Source: Sphingomonadales bacterium (GTDB lineage: Bacteria > Bacteroidota > Bacteroidia > Chitinophagales > Chitinophagaceae). From it: a DNA stretch of 52,425 nt. The stretch is from positions 1 through 52,425 of the forward strand of contig VHBB01000011.1 of NCBI GenBank assembly GCA_016872155.1. Direction: 5' to 3'. Positions 27,193 through 32,529 of the stretch are shown here, piece after piece; position 1 is the first letter of the stretch; every line of letters begins with the position of its first letter. A program made the translations under genes and the position numbers. The notes under the pieces were generated by a model that did no database searches, had not been told where the DNA came from, and saw only the letters and a program-made list of their open reading frames with translations.

Positions 27193-27690
27193 ATGAACCT
27201 TGTAAAAACGATTGGACTAACCCTGCTGGGTGCACTGGTAGTGATCCAATTTATTCATCCTAAAAAAAATCAATTGCCCGTTAATCCCGATTTGCAATTA
27301 GCGAGTCGCTTTTCAATTCCCGATTCGGTCAATGCTATTTTGCAAAAGGCTTGTATGGATTGTCACAGCAATACCTCTCGATACCCCTGGTATGCATCGA
27401 TACAACCCGTGGCCTGGTGGCTAGACGAACATATTCGCGATGGTAAAAAGCATTTGAACTTCGATGAGTATACCCACCGCTCGCTTCGCTATCAATATCA
27501 CAAAATGGAAGAGACCATCGAGATGGTCAAAGAAGAAGAGATGCCACTCCCCTCTTACACCTGGACCCATACCGAGGCCAGGCTTTCAACAGCAGAGCGG
27601 GTTGCTATTACACAGTGGGCCCAATCGGTAATGGATACGATGAAGCACCGCTATCCGGCCGATAGTCTGGTTAAGCCGCGTAAATCATAA
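27193..27690 (+). CDS. Haem-binding-domain protein (cytochrome c-like, membrane-anchored)
   Basis: 165 residues. An uncleaved N-terminal hydrophobic helix (TIGLTLLGALVVIQFI) is followed by one CMDCHS motif, in the haem_bd family context KACMDCHSNTSRYPWYASIQP, and by a conserved helix AWWLDEHIRDGKKHLNFDEY. One c-type haem attached through CxxCH and facing the periplasm is the expected state. Members occur widely in Bacteroidota as electron carriers of unknown partner. It lies between gpmI (14 bp) and a TonB-dependent receptor (21 bp) on the same strand. Confidence 0.86.
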   Translation: MNLVKTIGLTLLGALVVIQFIHPKKNQLPVNPDLQLASRFSIPDSVNAILQKACMDCHSNTSRYPWYASIQPVAWWLDEHIRDGKKHLNFDEYTHRSLRYQYHKMEETIEMVKEEEMPLPSYTWTHTEARLSTAERVAITQWAQSVMDTMKHRYPADSLVKPRKS

Positions 27691-27711
27691 CAAGTTTTCG
27701 ACGCGTAGCCC

Positions 27712-29940
27712 ATGCCAATTCAAAAAAAAATTTACCTCGCACTTTGTGCGTCACTTTTTTCTTTAGCAGCCACCGCCCAAGTAGACACGCTGGTGCAAAA
27801 AGAACTCGAAGAGGCCGTAGTCTACACCTCTAAATTTGCCGAAAAGAAAAAAAATATAGCCCAACCCATCGATGTAATCACGGCCAAGACCATTGCCAGA
27901 ACCAATGCGCAGAACATGGGCGATCTGCTCATTAACACCGGACAATTATATGTTCAAAAAAGTCAGCAAGGCGGAAGCAGCCCCGTTATTAGAGGTTTCG
28001 AGGCCAGTCGGGTGCTGTTGGTCGTAGATGGCATTCGACTGAACAATGCGATCTACCGCTCCGGACATTTGCAAAACGTAATTACCATCGATCAGTTTAT
28101 GCTCGACCGGGTAGAAGTGTTGTACGGACCGGGCTCCACACTCTATGGAAGCGATGCGCTGGGGGGTGTGGTACATATGCGTACCCGAACACCACTGCTT
28201 TCGCAGGGCACCAAAACCCTTTTTACCTCGCAATTGGTAACCCGCTTTAGCACCGCCAATAATGAACGCACCCTGCACAGCAGTCAGCAGATCGGCGGCA
28301 AAAAATGGGGTTGGTTGCAATCGGTAACCGTGAGTGAGTTTGATGATCTGCGAATGGGCGATCGCTATCCCAAAAAATATCCCGACTTTGGCAGAAGAAC
28401 GCAGTACATAGAGACCATCAATGGAGTCGATCAACTCGTGACCAACCATGATGATCGAATTCAAAAATTTTCGGGTTACAAGCAATGGGACCTGCTGGGT
28501 AAGCTACTCTTTAAACCCCGCGCCGACCAGACCCATGTACTCAATTTGCAGCACTCCAATTCTTCGAACATTCCACGGTACGATCGTCTTCAAGATCGCA
28601 AGACCTTTACCGGTATTGGCAATACACTTCGCTGGGCCGAATGGTACTACGGACCCCAAACACGGTGGCTGGCCGCTTACGAATGGGGTGCCAAAAACAT
28701 TAAATCTATCGACGAGCTGCGACTCAATCTCAATTACCAGCACATCAAAGAAAGTCGCAACCAGCGCGAGTATTTGGCCTACACGCAATTTGACAGCCGA
28801 CGCGAAGCCGTTACCGTTGCAGGTTTTACCCTCGATGCCAGAGAAAAATGGGGACGTCACGAACTGACCCTCGGTGCCGATGCGCAGCACAACGAAGTGC
28901 AATCAGCAGCCGATCGAACCAACTTATTAACTGGAACGATCACTGCTTTAGATACCCGTTACCCCGATGGACGCAACCGCATGACACTCGCCGGTCTCTA
29001 TGGGCAGCATCTCTACAAAAGCGGCAATGGAAAATGGATCGTCAATGACGGACTTCGGTTTCAAGTTGTGGGCTTGCACTCCACGCTTACTAACAACAGC
29101 TTTTTTAATTTTCCTTTTTCCAAGATCGAACAGCGCCAACAAGCCCTTACCGGTAATCTGGGAATCGTTCACCTCAGTGCTGCCTCCCTGCGAATCGCTG
29201 CCAATCTTGCCTCTGCCTTTAGAGCGCCCAATGTCGACGATGCCGCTCGCATCTTTGAATCGAGCAGCAGTGCTAGGCGTTTGATCGTTCCCAACCCGAA
29301 CGTAAAGCCGGAGTACACCTATACGGGTGACATCAATGTTCAATACAAAACTGAAAGAATAAAAATGGAACTGGGCTCGTTCTATACGCTTTTTCGCAAT
29401 GCCATGGCACTGGCTCCCTTTCGCTTAAATGGACAAGATTCCGTTTTGTACAACGGGATCATGGCCCGGGTCATTGCCAACCAAAATACCCGCAGGGCCT
29501 TTGTGCGGGGACTCAACTACCGCCTAGAGATGACCCTGACCAAAGGGCTTAGCTGGGAGACTACCATTACCAGCACCTATGGTCGTTTCATTAATCCTGA
29601 TAAGACCCTAAAGCCTCTCGATCATATTCCCCCCACCTTTGGACGCTCGGCCCTGCTCTACCAAAAAGAAGCGTTCTCTTGGGAATTTTTTCTGCTGTTC
29701 AATGGCACCAAAAAGATCGCCGACTTTAATCCCGATGGCGAGGATAACGGGCAATATGCCACCCCCGATGGCATGCCTGCCTGGTACACCCTCAATATCA
29801 GAACCGAATACCGGGCTGGCAAAGGCTTTACCCTGCAGGCCGGACTCGAGAACCTCTTGGACCGCAACTACCGCTATTTTGCCTCTGGTTTCTCGGCCCC
29901 CGGGCGTAATCTCTATGTGACCATCCGCCAAAATTTTTAA
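27712..29940 (+). CDS. TonB-dependent outer-membrane receptor, ligand uncertain
   Basis: 742 residues. Signal peptide to about residue 22 (ATAQ), a plug domain at about 40-160 and a 22-strand barrel after it, ending in an aromatic strand (LYVTIRQNF). The plug stretch SSPVIRGFEASRVLLVVDGIRLNNAIYRSGHLQNV closely resembles haemoglobin/haem-type receptors. FRAPN and NPNVKPE occur in the region corresponding to the FRAP/NPNL boxes of haem receptors, but no histidine lies between them, so haem specificity is not established. The preceding gene encodes a haem-binding-domain protein, a suggestive link only. Confidence 0.9.
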   Translation: MPIQKKIYLALCASLFSLAATAQVDTLVQKELEEAVVYTSKFAEKKKNIAQPIDVITAKTIARTNAQNMGDLLINTGQLYVQKSQQGGSSPVIRGFEASRVLLVVDGIRLNNAIYRSGHLQNVITIDQFMLDRVEVLYGPGSTLYGSDALGGVVHMRTRTPLLSQGTKTLFTSQLVTRFSTANNERTLHSSQQIGGKKWGWLQSVTVSEFDDLRMGDRYPKKYPDFGRRTQYIETINGVDQLVTNHDDRIQKFSGYKQWDLLGKLLFKPRADQTHVLNLQHSNSSNIPRYDRLQDRKTFTGIGNTLRWAEWYYGPQTRWLAAYEWGAKNIKSIDELRLNLNYQHIKESRNQREYLAYTQFDSRREAVTVAGFTLDAREKWGRHELTLGADAQHNEVQSAADRTNLLTGTITALDTRYPDGRNRMTLAGLYGQHLYKSGNGKWIVNDGLRFQVVGLHSTLTNNSFFNFPFSKIEQRQQALTGNLGIVHLSAASLRIAANLASAFRAPNVDDAARIFESSSSARRLIVPNPNVKPEYTYTGDINVQYKTERIKMELGSFYTLFRNAMALAPFRLNGQDSVLYNGIMARVIANQNTRRAFVRGLNYRLEMTLTKGLSWETTITSTYGRFINPDKTLKPLDHIPPTFGRSALLYQKEAFSWEFFLLFNGTKKIADFNPDGEDNGQYATPDGMPAWYTLNIRTEYRAGKGFTLQAGLENLLDRNYRYFASGFSAPGRNLYVTIRQNF

Positions 29941-29998
29941 CAGCGGCTGCAGCAATCTCCCTGCTAAATTGTCTTATATTAGTGGTCACCTCTGTTCC

Positions 29999-30577
29999 AT
30001 GACAGAAGAAGCCATCATAAAAGGTTGTATCAAGAATCAAGCGGCCGCGCAGCGAGAACTGTATACGCAATACAGTCCCAAGATGCTGGCCGTTTGTTAT
30101 CGGTACGCTCATAACCGCGAAGATGCAGAAGACATGTTACAAGAGGGATTCATAAAAGTATTCACCCAAATAGCACGCTTCGAGAATCGCGGTTCTTTCG
30201 AGGGATGGATCAGAAAGATCGTGGTACATACCTGCATCAACATCCTCAAGAAAAATAAAAAGTTCAACGAGAGTGTCGATCTGATCCACGCACATGGGGT
30301 GGCCCTGAAAGAAGATAGTATACCGGCGCTGGTGCAGGTCAAACAGATCGTGGAATGTATTCGACTGCTGCCTACCGGTTATCGGACCGTTTTGAACTTA
30401 TTTGCGATCGAGGGGTATAGTCACCGCGAGATCGCGCAGTTGTTAGATATAGAAGAGAGCACCAGCCGGAGCCAATTTACCAGGGCCAAGGCCATGCTCG
30501 AGGAGCTGTTGATCAGAAAAAAGATTTTGCAACCAAAGCAGGAGTCCGGCTGGCTAGCCGCCGTGGCTCCTCATTAA
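29999..30577 (+). CDS. ECF-type RNA polymerase sigma factor
   Basis: 192 residues from the ATG at 29999. Sigma region 2 is seen as QRELYTQYSPKMLAVCYRYAHNREDAEDMLQEGFIKVFTQI, and region 4 as IRLLPTGYRTVLNLFAIEGYSHREIAQLLDIEESTSRSQFTRAKAML; no region 3 separates them, which defines the extracytoplasmic-function class. It should direct RNA polymerase to a small regulon. The next gene, 27 bp downstream, has the topology of a membrane-bound regulator fused to a barrel and is the likely controlling partner. Confidence 0.94.
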   Translation: MTEEAIIKGCIKNQAAAQRELYTQYSPKMLAVCYRYAHNREDAEDMLQEGFIKVFTQIARFENRGSFEGWIRKIVVHTCINILKKNKKFNESVDLIHAHGVALKEDSIPALVQVKQIVECIRLLPTGYRTVLNLFAIEGYSHREIAQLLDIEESTSRSQFTRAKAMLEELLIRKKILQPKQESGWLAAVAPH

Positions 30578-30582
30578 AACAA

Positions 30583-30599
30583 CCTTGCCCCGCAAGGAG
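30583..30599 (+). promoter_or_regulatory. Hairpin overlapping the Shine-Dalgarno of the barrel gene
   Basis: CCTTGC at 30583-30588 pairs with GCAAGG at 30592-30597 around a CCC loop. The second arm overlaps a strong AAGGAG site (30594-30599) five bases before the ATG at 30605. Folding would mask the ribosome-binding site in the sigma-barrel transcript. Bacteroidota use Shine-Dalgarno sites weakly, so the effect is uncertain. Confidence 0.5.
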
Positions 30600-30604
30600 C
30601 TGCC

Positions 30605-31918
30605 ATGCCGATGGATGGGAATAAAGACCATAGTGAATTCGAGCATTTTTTAAAACAGAATGCAGATGCGCATCGTTTATACCCCTCTGACCGGGTATGG
30701 AGTCGTATCTATTCACGTATGCATGGCCGCCGTCAGCGCAGGGTGGCATTGTTGCTGCTACTTCCCTTATTAGCCGGAACGGCCTGGTTCTTATCAGACT
30801 CTTTACAGCACCGTTCGGAACTTTCCTCTACAGGCAACAAGACAACGTACTCGTTAGCGCTTACGCAGCCCAGTGCAGAACAGCAACCCCGAACAGAGCT
30901 ACAACCCAATGCAGAACTGCAACCCCGTGCAGAACTGGAGCCCAATGCAGAACTGCAACCTCGAGCAGCGCTGCCACTCAATGCAGTGCTGCCACCCGTT
31001 ATTGAGTTGAACACCGTAACCGAAACCCAAGAAGCCTCTGTATCCGAAGAAGCGATCCCTGCACTTCCGCAAGAGAAAACGATCGAAACCCTTGCTACTG
31101 TAGCCTCGGCCCGGCAAGACGATCGCTATCCGCTCGATATTGAAAGTGTGGTCAACAGCTACCAGCGACAACTGCATCAACCCCGCTTTAAATGGCAGGT
31201 GCATTTTACGCCTACCGTCAGCTACCGTTCGCTACAAGAAGATCAAAAGTTCATTGCCCAAGCAAGAATGAGCAGTGCGGCTCCCGCCAGCGCGAATACC
31301 AACCCTACCGATTTGTCGAGTGTCATTCGTCACCGTCCTGACCTTGGGATGCAAATTGGGTTGACCGGCACTTATCCCATTAGTAAAAAAATAGACTGGG
31401 TAACCGGCATTCAATTCAACGTAAGCAAATACGATATTGCCGCTTACAACTACCCCTCCGAAGTGGCGACCATTGCGCTCATGAACCCCTGGGGAGGTAC
31501 CAGCACGGTCAGCACGCTTACCAGTTTTCGCAGCAGTGGATTTCGCTCGGCCGCTAACTGGCTGCGCAATTACTATTACTCTGTATCAATCCCCATTGGA
31601 CTACAATGGCGCATATTGGGTAAAAAACAAACGCATTGGGGCATCAGTGCCACTGCGCAGCCTACCTATGTCGTCGGTAACCGCTCTTATGTAATCTCGG
31701 TCGATTATCAGAATTATGCCGAAGTGCCTTACCTTATTAACAAGTGGAACCTTAATATCGGGTTAGAGACCTATGCCCGTTTTCAATTGGGTAAAAATGA
31801 TTTTCAGATCGGTCCACAGATCCGCTACCAGGCTCTCTCCAGCTTTAAAAAGGGCTACCCCGTTCAGGAACACCTCTACGATTTTGGTATCAAATTGGGG
31901 TTGATACTAGGCAAATAG
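30605..31918 (+). CDS. Putative trans-envelope protein: cytoplasmic N-terminus, one TM helix, repeat linker, outer-membrane-type beta-barrel
   Basis: 437 residues. Residues 1-46 are hydrophilic with an RVWSRIYSRMHGRRQRR stretch that would stay in the cytoplasm. About 47-66 is a single hydrophobic helix with no signal-peptidase site. Residues 70-185 are a Pro/Glu-rich linker holding seven six-residue repeats at 91-132. From about 195 to the end, alternating strands (WQVHFTPTVSYR, YYYSVSIPIGLQWRI, FQIGPQIRYQA, YDFGIKLGLILG) look like an 8-10 strand barrel. The N-terminal arrangement recalls anti-sigma factors, and the gene follows an ECF sigma gene. Anti-sigma activity is inference; no zinc-binding anti-sigma motif is visible. 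The pattern seems to occur in related Chitinophagaceae. Confidence 0.75.
   Translation: MPMDGNKDHSEFEHFLKQNADAHRLYPSDRVWSRIYSRMHGRRQRRVALLLLLPLLAGTAWFLSDSLQHRSELSSTGNKTTYSLALTQPSAEQQPRTELQPNAELQPRAELEPNAELQPRAALPLNAVLPPVIELNTVTETQEASVSEEAIPALPQEKTIETLATVASARQDDRYPLDIESVVNSYQRQLHQPRFKWQVHFTPTVSYRSLQEDQKFIAQARMSSAAPASANTNPTDLSSVIRHRPDLGMQIGLTGTYPISKKIDWVTGIQFNVSKYDIAAYNYPSEVATIALMNPWGGTSTVSTLTSFRSSGFRSAANWLRNYYYSVSIPIGLQWRILGKKQTHWGISATAQPTYVVGNRSYVISVDYQNYAEVPYLINKWNLNIGLETYARFQLGKNDFQIGPQIRYQALSSFKKGYPVQEHLYDFGIKLGLILGK
30875..31000 (+). repeat. Seven 18-bp in-frame tandem repeats (six-residue units)
   Basis: Within the barrel gene the residues 91-132 split into seven six-residue units of the form A/T-E-x-x-P-R/N: AEQQPR, TELQPN, AELQPR, AELEPN, AELQPR, AALPLN and AVLPPV. 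At the DNA level the unit is close to gcagaactgcaaccccgt. The central units are most alike; the last two have drifted. Confidence 0.85.
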
Positions 31919-31956: not shown

Positions 31957-32529
31957 ATGAAAAATCGGCTGACCGCCTTTGCGATCGCGCTGCTCCTGCT
32001 TACAGGATGCAAGCACGACCAAAAACCCGCATCAAGTTTTGTCTCGATCCCTTCACTTATCGAGGCGCAAGTAGCCCATATCGACACCTCGCTTTACTCC
32101 ATTACCCGCTACGATTACCGCGGCACCGATACCATTCCCTTCGATACTCTCTACATTGCACGCGAACAATTTAGAAAAGAGGCTCTTCCGTTTTTGAACC
32201 TACCCGATCTTTTACAACCTGCCTTTGCAAAACGATATAGCGAAGAAAGCCGCTACGACGAATTGATGAAAAAGGTTATTCTTAGCTACGTGCCCGTCAA
32301 TCCCAACAACGAGGAGTGGCAAAAAGAAGAACTGCATGTGCTGCCCAGTGTAGCCGAGGGCGATAAGGTCACCACCATCTTGGCCAGCAGGATCGTCAAC
32401 GATCGCAACGGACTGCTACAAGAAGAATTTTTATGGCTCATGGACAAAAGCTTTACCATTGTTCGTACCACCCAATTGCCCGGAGAGCCCGCACAACTTA
32501 TCACGACCAAAGTAAGCTGGAACCAGTAG
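31957..32529 (+). CDS. Lipoprotein of unknown function
   Basis: 190 residues. A lipoprotein signal peptide ends at LLTGC (Cys18), followed by KHDQKPASS. The mature protein is mixed alpha/beta, with SLYSITRYDYRGTDTIPFDTLYI followed by a helical segment and a strand pair in the last 60 residues (ASRIVNDRNGLLQEEFLWLMDKSFTIVRTT). I recognise no named family. It lies 38 bp after the barrel gene and 6 bp before uvrC on the same strand, and could belong to either transcript. Confidence 0.75.
   Translation: MKNRLTAFAIALLLLTGCKHDQKPASSFVSIPSLIEAQVAHIDTSLYSITRYDYRGTDTIPFDTLYIAREQFRKEALPFLNLPDLLQPAFAKRYSEESRYDELMKKVILSYVPVNPNNEEWQKEELHVLPSVAEGDKVTTILASRIVNDRNGLLQEEFLWLMDKSFTIVRTTQLPGEPAQLITTKVSWNQ

What the first reader, a model, noticed from the sequence alone, without database searches (positions are those of the whole stretch)
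29999..31918. ECF sigma factor paired with a single protein that appears to span both membranes
The gene after the sigma factor encodes, in order, a basic cytoplasmic tail, one uncleaved transmembrane helix, a Pro/Glu-rich linker of over 100 residues and an outer-membrane-type beta-barrel. The usual route from the outer membrane to an ECF sigma factor needs two proteins (receptor and anti-sigma). Here one polypeptide could do both: the barrel senses at the surface and the tail binds the sigma factor. Seen: topology and adjacency. Inferred: sensing and anti-sigma function. The main puzzle is how an inner-membrane-anchored protein would have its barrel inserted in the outer membrane.
Basis: partly seen in the sequence, partly recalled or inferred. 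Interest (0 to 1): 0.72.

Follow-up and report, generated by a model that had tools for sequence, protein, structure and literature searches.

The report
Sigma factor with membrane-spanning sensor
The gene pair is real and conserved: a transcription-switching sigma factor followed by a protein that probably runs from the cytoplasm to the outer membrane and holds the sigma factor back, a kind of regulator already described in gut Bacteroides (Dma, Reo), here in another branch of the phylum.

Summary
An ECF sigma gene (29999-30577) is followed 27 bp later by a 437-residue protein: conserved tail, one TM helix, 128-residue linker, OMP_b-brl_2 barrel. All 32 first-fetched loci, window included, carry the pair. 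In 79 loci (36 same-family), all 75 proteins with a tail have a sigma gene beside them; the 4 without a tail have none. In 28 orthologs the linker diverges (17% identity) but is never under 128 residues; tail and barrel keep 54% identity and near-fixed length. This is the architecture published as Dma (B. thetaiotaomicron) and Reo (Phocaeicola). A tail profile finds sigma-paired barrel proteins in a NigD-bearing family. Sigma binding was not tested; both structure predictions failed. New here: a conserved promoter-like motif TGCAGC-N16-TGTCTNA before the sigma gene (core in 32 of 35 upstream regions), with one exact match in this genome, and a lipoprotein gene downstream in 32 of 36 loci. Whether other genes are targets is open. 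Verdict: new member of a known kind.

The parts
29948..29976 (+). promoter-like motif TGCAGC-N16-TGTCTTA before the sigma gene, probable autoregulated ECF promoter
   Evidence: GCAG-N17-TGTC in 32 of 35 ortholog upstream regions against at most 5 of 35 in five shuffled sets; only exact match in the window and in this genome
29999..30577 (+). ECF sigma factor gene, 192 aa
   Evidence: Sigma70_r2, Sigma70_r4_2, TIGR02937 over their cut-offs
30605..31918 (+). 437-aa Dma/Reo-type membrane-spanning anti-sigma factor gene
   Evidence: domain order, pairing with the sigma gene and conservation pattern
30605..30742 (+). cytoplasmic tail, residues 1-46, presumed sigma-binding module
   Evidence: 41-43 residues, mean pairwise identity 0.54 in 28 orthologs; shared with sigma-paired proteins of other families
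30743..30799 (+). transmembrane helix, residues 47-65
   Evidence: best hydrophobic stretch; no cleavage site conserved in place
30800..31183 (+). linker, residues 66-193, presumed periplasmic tether, with an 18-bp tandem repeat at 30865-30997
   Evidence: 0.17 identity, 128-194 residues in 28 orthologs
31184..31915 (+). outer-membrane beta-barrel domain, residues 194-437
   Evidence: PF13568 over its cut-off; strand alternation above 500 of 500 shuffles
31957..32529 (+). 190-aa predicted lipoprotein, probable operon partner
   Evidence: homolog downstream in 32 of 36 Chitinophagaceae loci; no Pfam match at E<=1; lipobox LLLLTGC read by eye

Best explanation
A Dma/Reo-type sigma/anti-sigma pair. 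The N-terminal tail of the second protein holds the ECF sigma factor at the inner membrane; the TM helix anchors it; the long disordered linker crosses the periplasm; the C-terminal barrel sits in the outer membrane and senses an unknown signal there, probably outer-membrane stress or a ligand. The signal frees the sigma factor, which transcribes its own operon (sigma, anti-sigma, lipoprotein) from the TGCAGC-N16-TGTCTNA promoter. Shown here: gene order, domain order, conservation pattern, promoter-like motif. Inferred: sigma binding, inhibition, outer-membrane insertion, sensing, release, promoter activity.
For: Pairing in 32 of 32 first-fetched loci. Over 79 loci, 75 of 75 proteins whose TM helix starts at residue 37 or later have an adjacent sigma gene, 0 of 4 with TM start at residue 18 or earlier do. 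Linker free in sequence but at least 128 residues in all 28 aligned orthologs; tail and barrel near-fixed in length. Barrel match and strand alternation. In this genome the other 5 PF13568 places lie nowhere near the sigma-family places found. A tail profile finds sigma-paired proteins in a NigD-bearing family (27 of 30 loci), and profile-profile comparison gives 96.2% probability, E 2.8e-9, over 39 tail columns. Published Dma2 and Reo have this domain order and deletion of each switches on effects that need its sigma factor; BT1558 (Dma2) had no signal peptide by SignalP and is reported in vesicles. Promoter motif.
Against: No direct evidence of binding or localisation. Both structure models, from 3 sequences each, had mean pLDDT 35.8 and 39.5 and prove nothing. 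11 of 28 orthologs do not reach PF13568 at E<=0.01. The barrels of this group and of the NigD-bearing family did not align. A marginal GTA site lies in the TM segment of the window protein. Sequences of Dma1, Dma2 and Reo themselves were not at hand. The conserved block before the sigma gene runs on into the leader up to the start codon, so part of it may be an mRNA element rather than a promoter. Off-locus motif sites exceed the reversed control (11 against 5 exact in 31 genomes; 43 against 15 with up to one mismatch in 6 genomes), so further targets are neither shown nor excluded.
Confidence: 0.88

Rival explanations
1. Tail and TM helix are an unusually long signal peptide: the barrel is cut off and goes to the outer membrane as an ordinary protein, and the tail has a separate role or none.
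For: A marginal small-x-small site (GTA) in the TM segment of the window protein; the other PF13568 proteins of this genome seem to begin with ordinary signal peptides, by eye.
Against: No site conserved in place over 28 orthologs; tail as conserved as the barrel (0.54 each); tail presence goes with sigma adjacency in 79 of 79 loci.
Confidence: 0.05
2. An ordinary inner-membrane anti-sigma factor whose C-terminal beta domain stays in the periplasm and is not inserted in the outer membrane.
For: The Pfam score is only 1.3 bits over the cut-off and 11 of 28 orthologs miss E<=0.01; no usable structure model.
Against: Barrel length near-fixed with strand alternation; linker never under 128 residues; the family model is one of outer-membrane barrels.
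Confidence: 0.05
3. The tail does not restrain but helps the sigma factor (a positive regulator, as FecR is for FecI in Escherichia coli; recalled).
For: Adjacency and a bound tail would look the same; nothing here measures the sign.
Against: In published Dma2 and Reo, deletion of the membrane protein switches the sigma-dependent effects on.
Confidence: 0.06

Closest known systems
Dma family (Dma1, Dma2 with Das1, Das2), Bacteroides thetaiotaomicron
   Same: Order: N-terminal anti-sigma domain, TM helix, long disordered tether, C-terminal beta-barrel; gene beside an ECF sigma gene; dma2 in a three-gene operon (PMC13088901, sections read). The founding PNAS 2024 paper was not held and is known here from reference lists and recall.
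   Different: Against a NigD-bearing family taken as the Bacteroidaceae-like group, only the tail aligns, not the barrel. The downstream lipoprotein has no Pfam match, so no sign that it is the DUF4943 gene of the dma2 operon. ECF21 membership of this sigma was not tested.
EcfO-Reo of Bacteroides fragilis and Phocaeicola vulgatus
   Same: Sigma gene followed by an anti-sigma factor predicted to run from the cytoplasm through both membranes; induced by outer-membrane-acting toxins in P. vulgatus (passages of PMC9308784, PMC13114119).
   Different: The EcfO regulon includes NigD genes; NigD_N was not found in this genome. Sequences not compared directly.
FecA-FecR-FecI type cell-surface signalling (recalled)
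   Same: An outer-membrane signal reaches an ECF sigma factor.
   Different: There two proteins, receptor and anti-sigma factor, do what one polypeptide would do here; no FecR domain match.

Membership tests
Dma/Reo membrane-spanning anti-sigma factors | gene adjacent to an ECF sigma gene | tested here: met
   32 of 32 first-fetched loci; 75 of 79 loci in all, the 4 others lacking the tail
Dma/Reo membrane-spanning anti-sigma factors | N-terminal anti-sigma domain homologous to that of known members | tested here: inconclusive
   tail aligns with that of sigma-paired barrel proteins in a NigD-bearing family (96.2%, E 2.8e-9, 39 columns); Dma1, Dma2 and Reo sequences themselves not compared
Dma/Reo membrane-spanning anti-sigma factors | single TM helix | tested here: met
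   hydrophobic stretch 47-65, in the same place in 28 aligned orthologs; hydropathy only
Dma/Reo membrane-spanning anti-sigma factors | long disordered tether | tested here: met
   128-194 residues at 0.17 identity in 28 orthologs; disorder itself inferred from composition and divergence
Dma/Reo membrane-spanning anti-sigma factors | C-terminal outer-membrane beta-barrel | tested here: met
   PF13568 over its cut-off by 1.3 bits; 17 of 28 orthologs at E<=0.01; alternation; no usable structure model
Dma/Reo membrane-spanning anti-sigma factors | cognate sigma factor of group ECF21 | not tested
   no ECF group model at hand; in a tree of 48 hand-picked rows it groups with the other tail-linked sigmas
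Dma/Reo membrane-spanning anti-sigma factors | restrains its sigma factor | not testable with these tools
   needs deletion strains or binding assays
FecR-type two-protein surface signalling | FecR-domain anti-sigma factor beside a separate outer-membrane transducer | tested here: not met
   no FecR domain match in the second protein; a TonB receptor gene lies upstream in the window, but whether it is regularly there was not fairly testable

The most novel reading that the evidence does not exclude
The tail is a small exchangeable sigma-holding module that Bacteroidota have joined to several different envelope sensors: barrels of unrelated-looking sequence, a four-fold tandem tail, and a PKD plus type IX sorting domain. 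In Chitinophagaceae the pair forms a nearly closed circuit whose main target is its own operon, with the lipoprotein as the effector that restores the outer membrane.
Probability: 0.25. Interest if true: 0.6.

Novelty: new member of a known kind. Interest (0 to 1): 0.36.

Why it matters
It shows that membrane-spanning anti-sigma factors are a widely kept system in this family (132 of 195 genomes drawn), not only a gut Bacteroides feature, and one kept in a 1.79-Mb genome. The conserved promoter-like motif offers a reporter for finding the signal, and the link between tail and sigma gene supplies a natural test of which part binds the sigma factor. How a protein anchored in the inner membrane delivers its barrel to the outer membrane is an open, testable question.

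Tried and rejected
Structure prediction of the whole protein and of the barrel alone, from 3 sequences each, gave mean pLDDT 35.8 and 39.5; no fold search was run on them. A profile of 28 orthologs found no relative among solved structures (best E 0.26, taken as chance). Regulon search: with up to one mismatch the six genomes tried gave 49 sites, 6 of them the sigma promoters, against 15 for the reversed control (G000 4/3, G004 8/7, G091 7/2, G118 5/1, G027 17/0, G040 8/2). The reversed pattern contains CpG pairs and may be rarer for that reason alone, so I take the excess neither as a regulon nor as its absence; the sites were not read. A search joining the PF13568 model name with sigma factors gave one paper, seen in the listing only. 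The TonB receptor upstream was not taken as a partner: its homolog was seen upstream in few of 36 loci, but most loci hold little upstream sequence, so this is no fair test. My motif regex missed 7 of the 75 tails, so the tail was judged by the place of the TM helix, a rule set after seeing the table; the Fisher value printed belongs to the regex and is not used. A T9SS paper search gave nothing on a type IX anti-sigma factor in its listing.

Full report
What is there. At 29999-30577 is an ECF sigma gene and at 30605-31918, same strand, a gene for a 437-residue protein. Its parts in order are a tail (1-46), a TM helix (47-65), a linker (66-193) and a barrel (194-437).

Conservation. A homolog is present in 132 of 195 genomes drawn from the family, the own one included. 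All 32 loci first fetched, the window's own among them, have a sigma gene directly upstream (in L024 cut by the contig end). In 28 aligned orthologs tail and barrel each keep a mean pairwise identity of 0.54 and near-constant length (41-43 and 236-244), while the linker has 0.17 and varies from 128 to 194; the window has 128, the shortest. A linker free in sequence but bounded below in length is what a tether across the periplasm should look like.

Tail and sigma gene. A search of 395 genomes of the class found the profile in 47, own family included. Over 79 loci (36 of the family, the rest mostly of other families), the TM helix starts at residue 37 or later in 75, and all 75 have a sigma gene on the same strand beside them; in 4 it starts at residue 18 or earlier and none has one. 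Of these four, L097 looks like an ordinary secreted barrel, and L078, L088 and L099 keep a TM segment and a C-terminus that matches the barrel part of the profile but have no tail. The loci were gathered by similarity, are partly related by descent, and the TM rule was set afterwards, so no probability is attached. A few tail proteins (L079, L084, L094, L095) are short and seem to lack a barrel.

Link to Bacteroidales. A profile of 41 tails, at a loose threshold of E 0.1, matches in 43 of 61 genomes of a family chosen because it carries NigD genes; that it is Bacteroidaceae is my guess. Of 30 loci read, 27 have a sigma gene beside the match; the misses are L113, L123 (contig start) and L129. 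L111, L113, L128 and L129 do not end like barrels. In 4 of the 6 NigD-bearing genomes of that family seen a NigD gene lies within about 1.1 kb of a tail match, which recalls the NigD targets of Dma1 and EcfO. Profile against profile, only 39 tail columns align: the holding module is shared, the sensor is not visibly so. In a sigma tree of 48 hand-picked rows the 43 tail-linked sigmas group apart from four of the five other ECF sigmas taken from this genome; the fifth, L043, falls inside on a very long branch and its place is unsure.

Promoter and operon. Before the sigma gene lies TGCAGC-N16-TGTCTTA (29948-29976). The core is in 32 of 35 ortholog upstream regions, against at most 5 of 35 in five block-shuffled sets. 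Shuffles do not allow for relatedness. The side towards the upstream gene is much less alike, but the conserved block continues through the leader (TTACAGGCAACC) to the start codon, so an mRNA element is possible too. In 31 genomes the pattern with TGTCTNA has 37 exact sites, 26 at this locus and 11 elsewhere, against 5 for the reversed control; 28 of 31 genomes have one. In this genome the only exact site is the sigma promoter. With up to one mismatch, sites outnumber the reversed control in all six genomes tried, most in G027, but the control is not well matched, so the size of the regulon is open. Downstream, a lipoprotein homolog is found in 32 of 36 loci and uvrC in 32 of 36 (the L032 contig ends before uvrC).

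Mechanism. The best-supported account is a Dma/Reo-type system: the tail restrains the sigma factor, the barrel senses at the outer membrane, and release switches on the operon, which replenishes its own inhibitor. Restraint, sensing and insertion rest on published relatives and on the conservation pattern, not on a test here.

Novelty. The architecture is in print, so this is a new member of a known kind. Library searches listed, by title and abstract start, no paper on a Chitinophagaceae case; the founding paper was not held and may already include such members.

Noticed in passing
L093 (= L132) and L133-L151, family f22: A sigma gene followed by a tail and TM protein whose C-terminus is PKD plus a type IX sorting domain instead of a barrel (PF13585 and TIGR04131 over their cut-offs, only L093 scanned). 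Sigma-paired in 20 of 20 fetched loci. Possibly an anti-sigma factor taken to the surface by type IX secretion; one paper search listed nothing on it.
   Followed up: partly
L061, L062, L072, L076 N-termini: The tail motif seems to occur four times in tandem, 31 residues apart, before the TM helix: four copies by eye, 4 profile hits in L072 and L076 and 3 in L061 and L062, as if the sigma-holding unit had been multiplied.
   Followed up: partly
L078, L088, L099: TM-anchored proteins matching the barrel part of the profile, without the tail and without a sigma gene nearby: apparent tail-less variants.
   Followed up: partly
window 27193-29940: A small protein with a CMDCHSN haem-like motif (by eye) and a TonB-dependent receptor nearest the haemoglobin/transferrin type (TIGR01786 205.6 bits, below its cut-off) lie upstream; the receptor is at the same place in the two closest relatives.
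   Followed up: no
L041 (same genome, C5): Another ECF sigma gene followed by a 204-aa gene and a small Pro-rich exported-looking protein that resembles Spy by eye (untested); compare the Spy gene beside cirYZ in P. vulgatus.
   Followed up: no
G027 genome: 17 sites with up to one mismatch of the promoter motif against 0 for the reversed control, more than in the other five genomes; sites not read.
   Followed up: no
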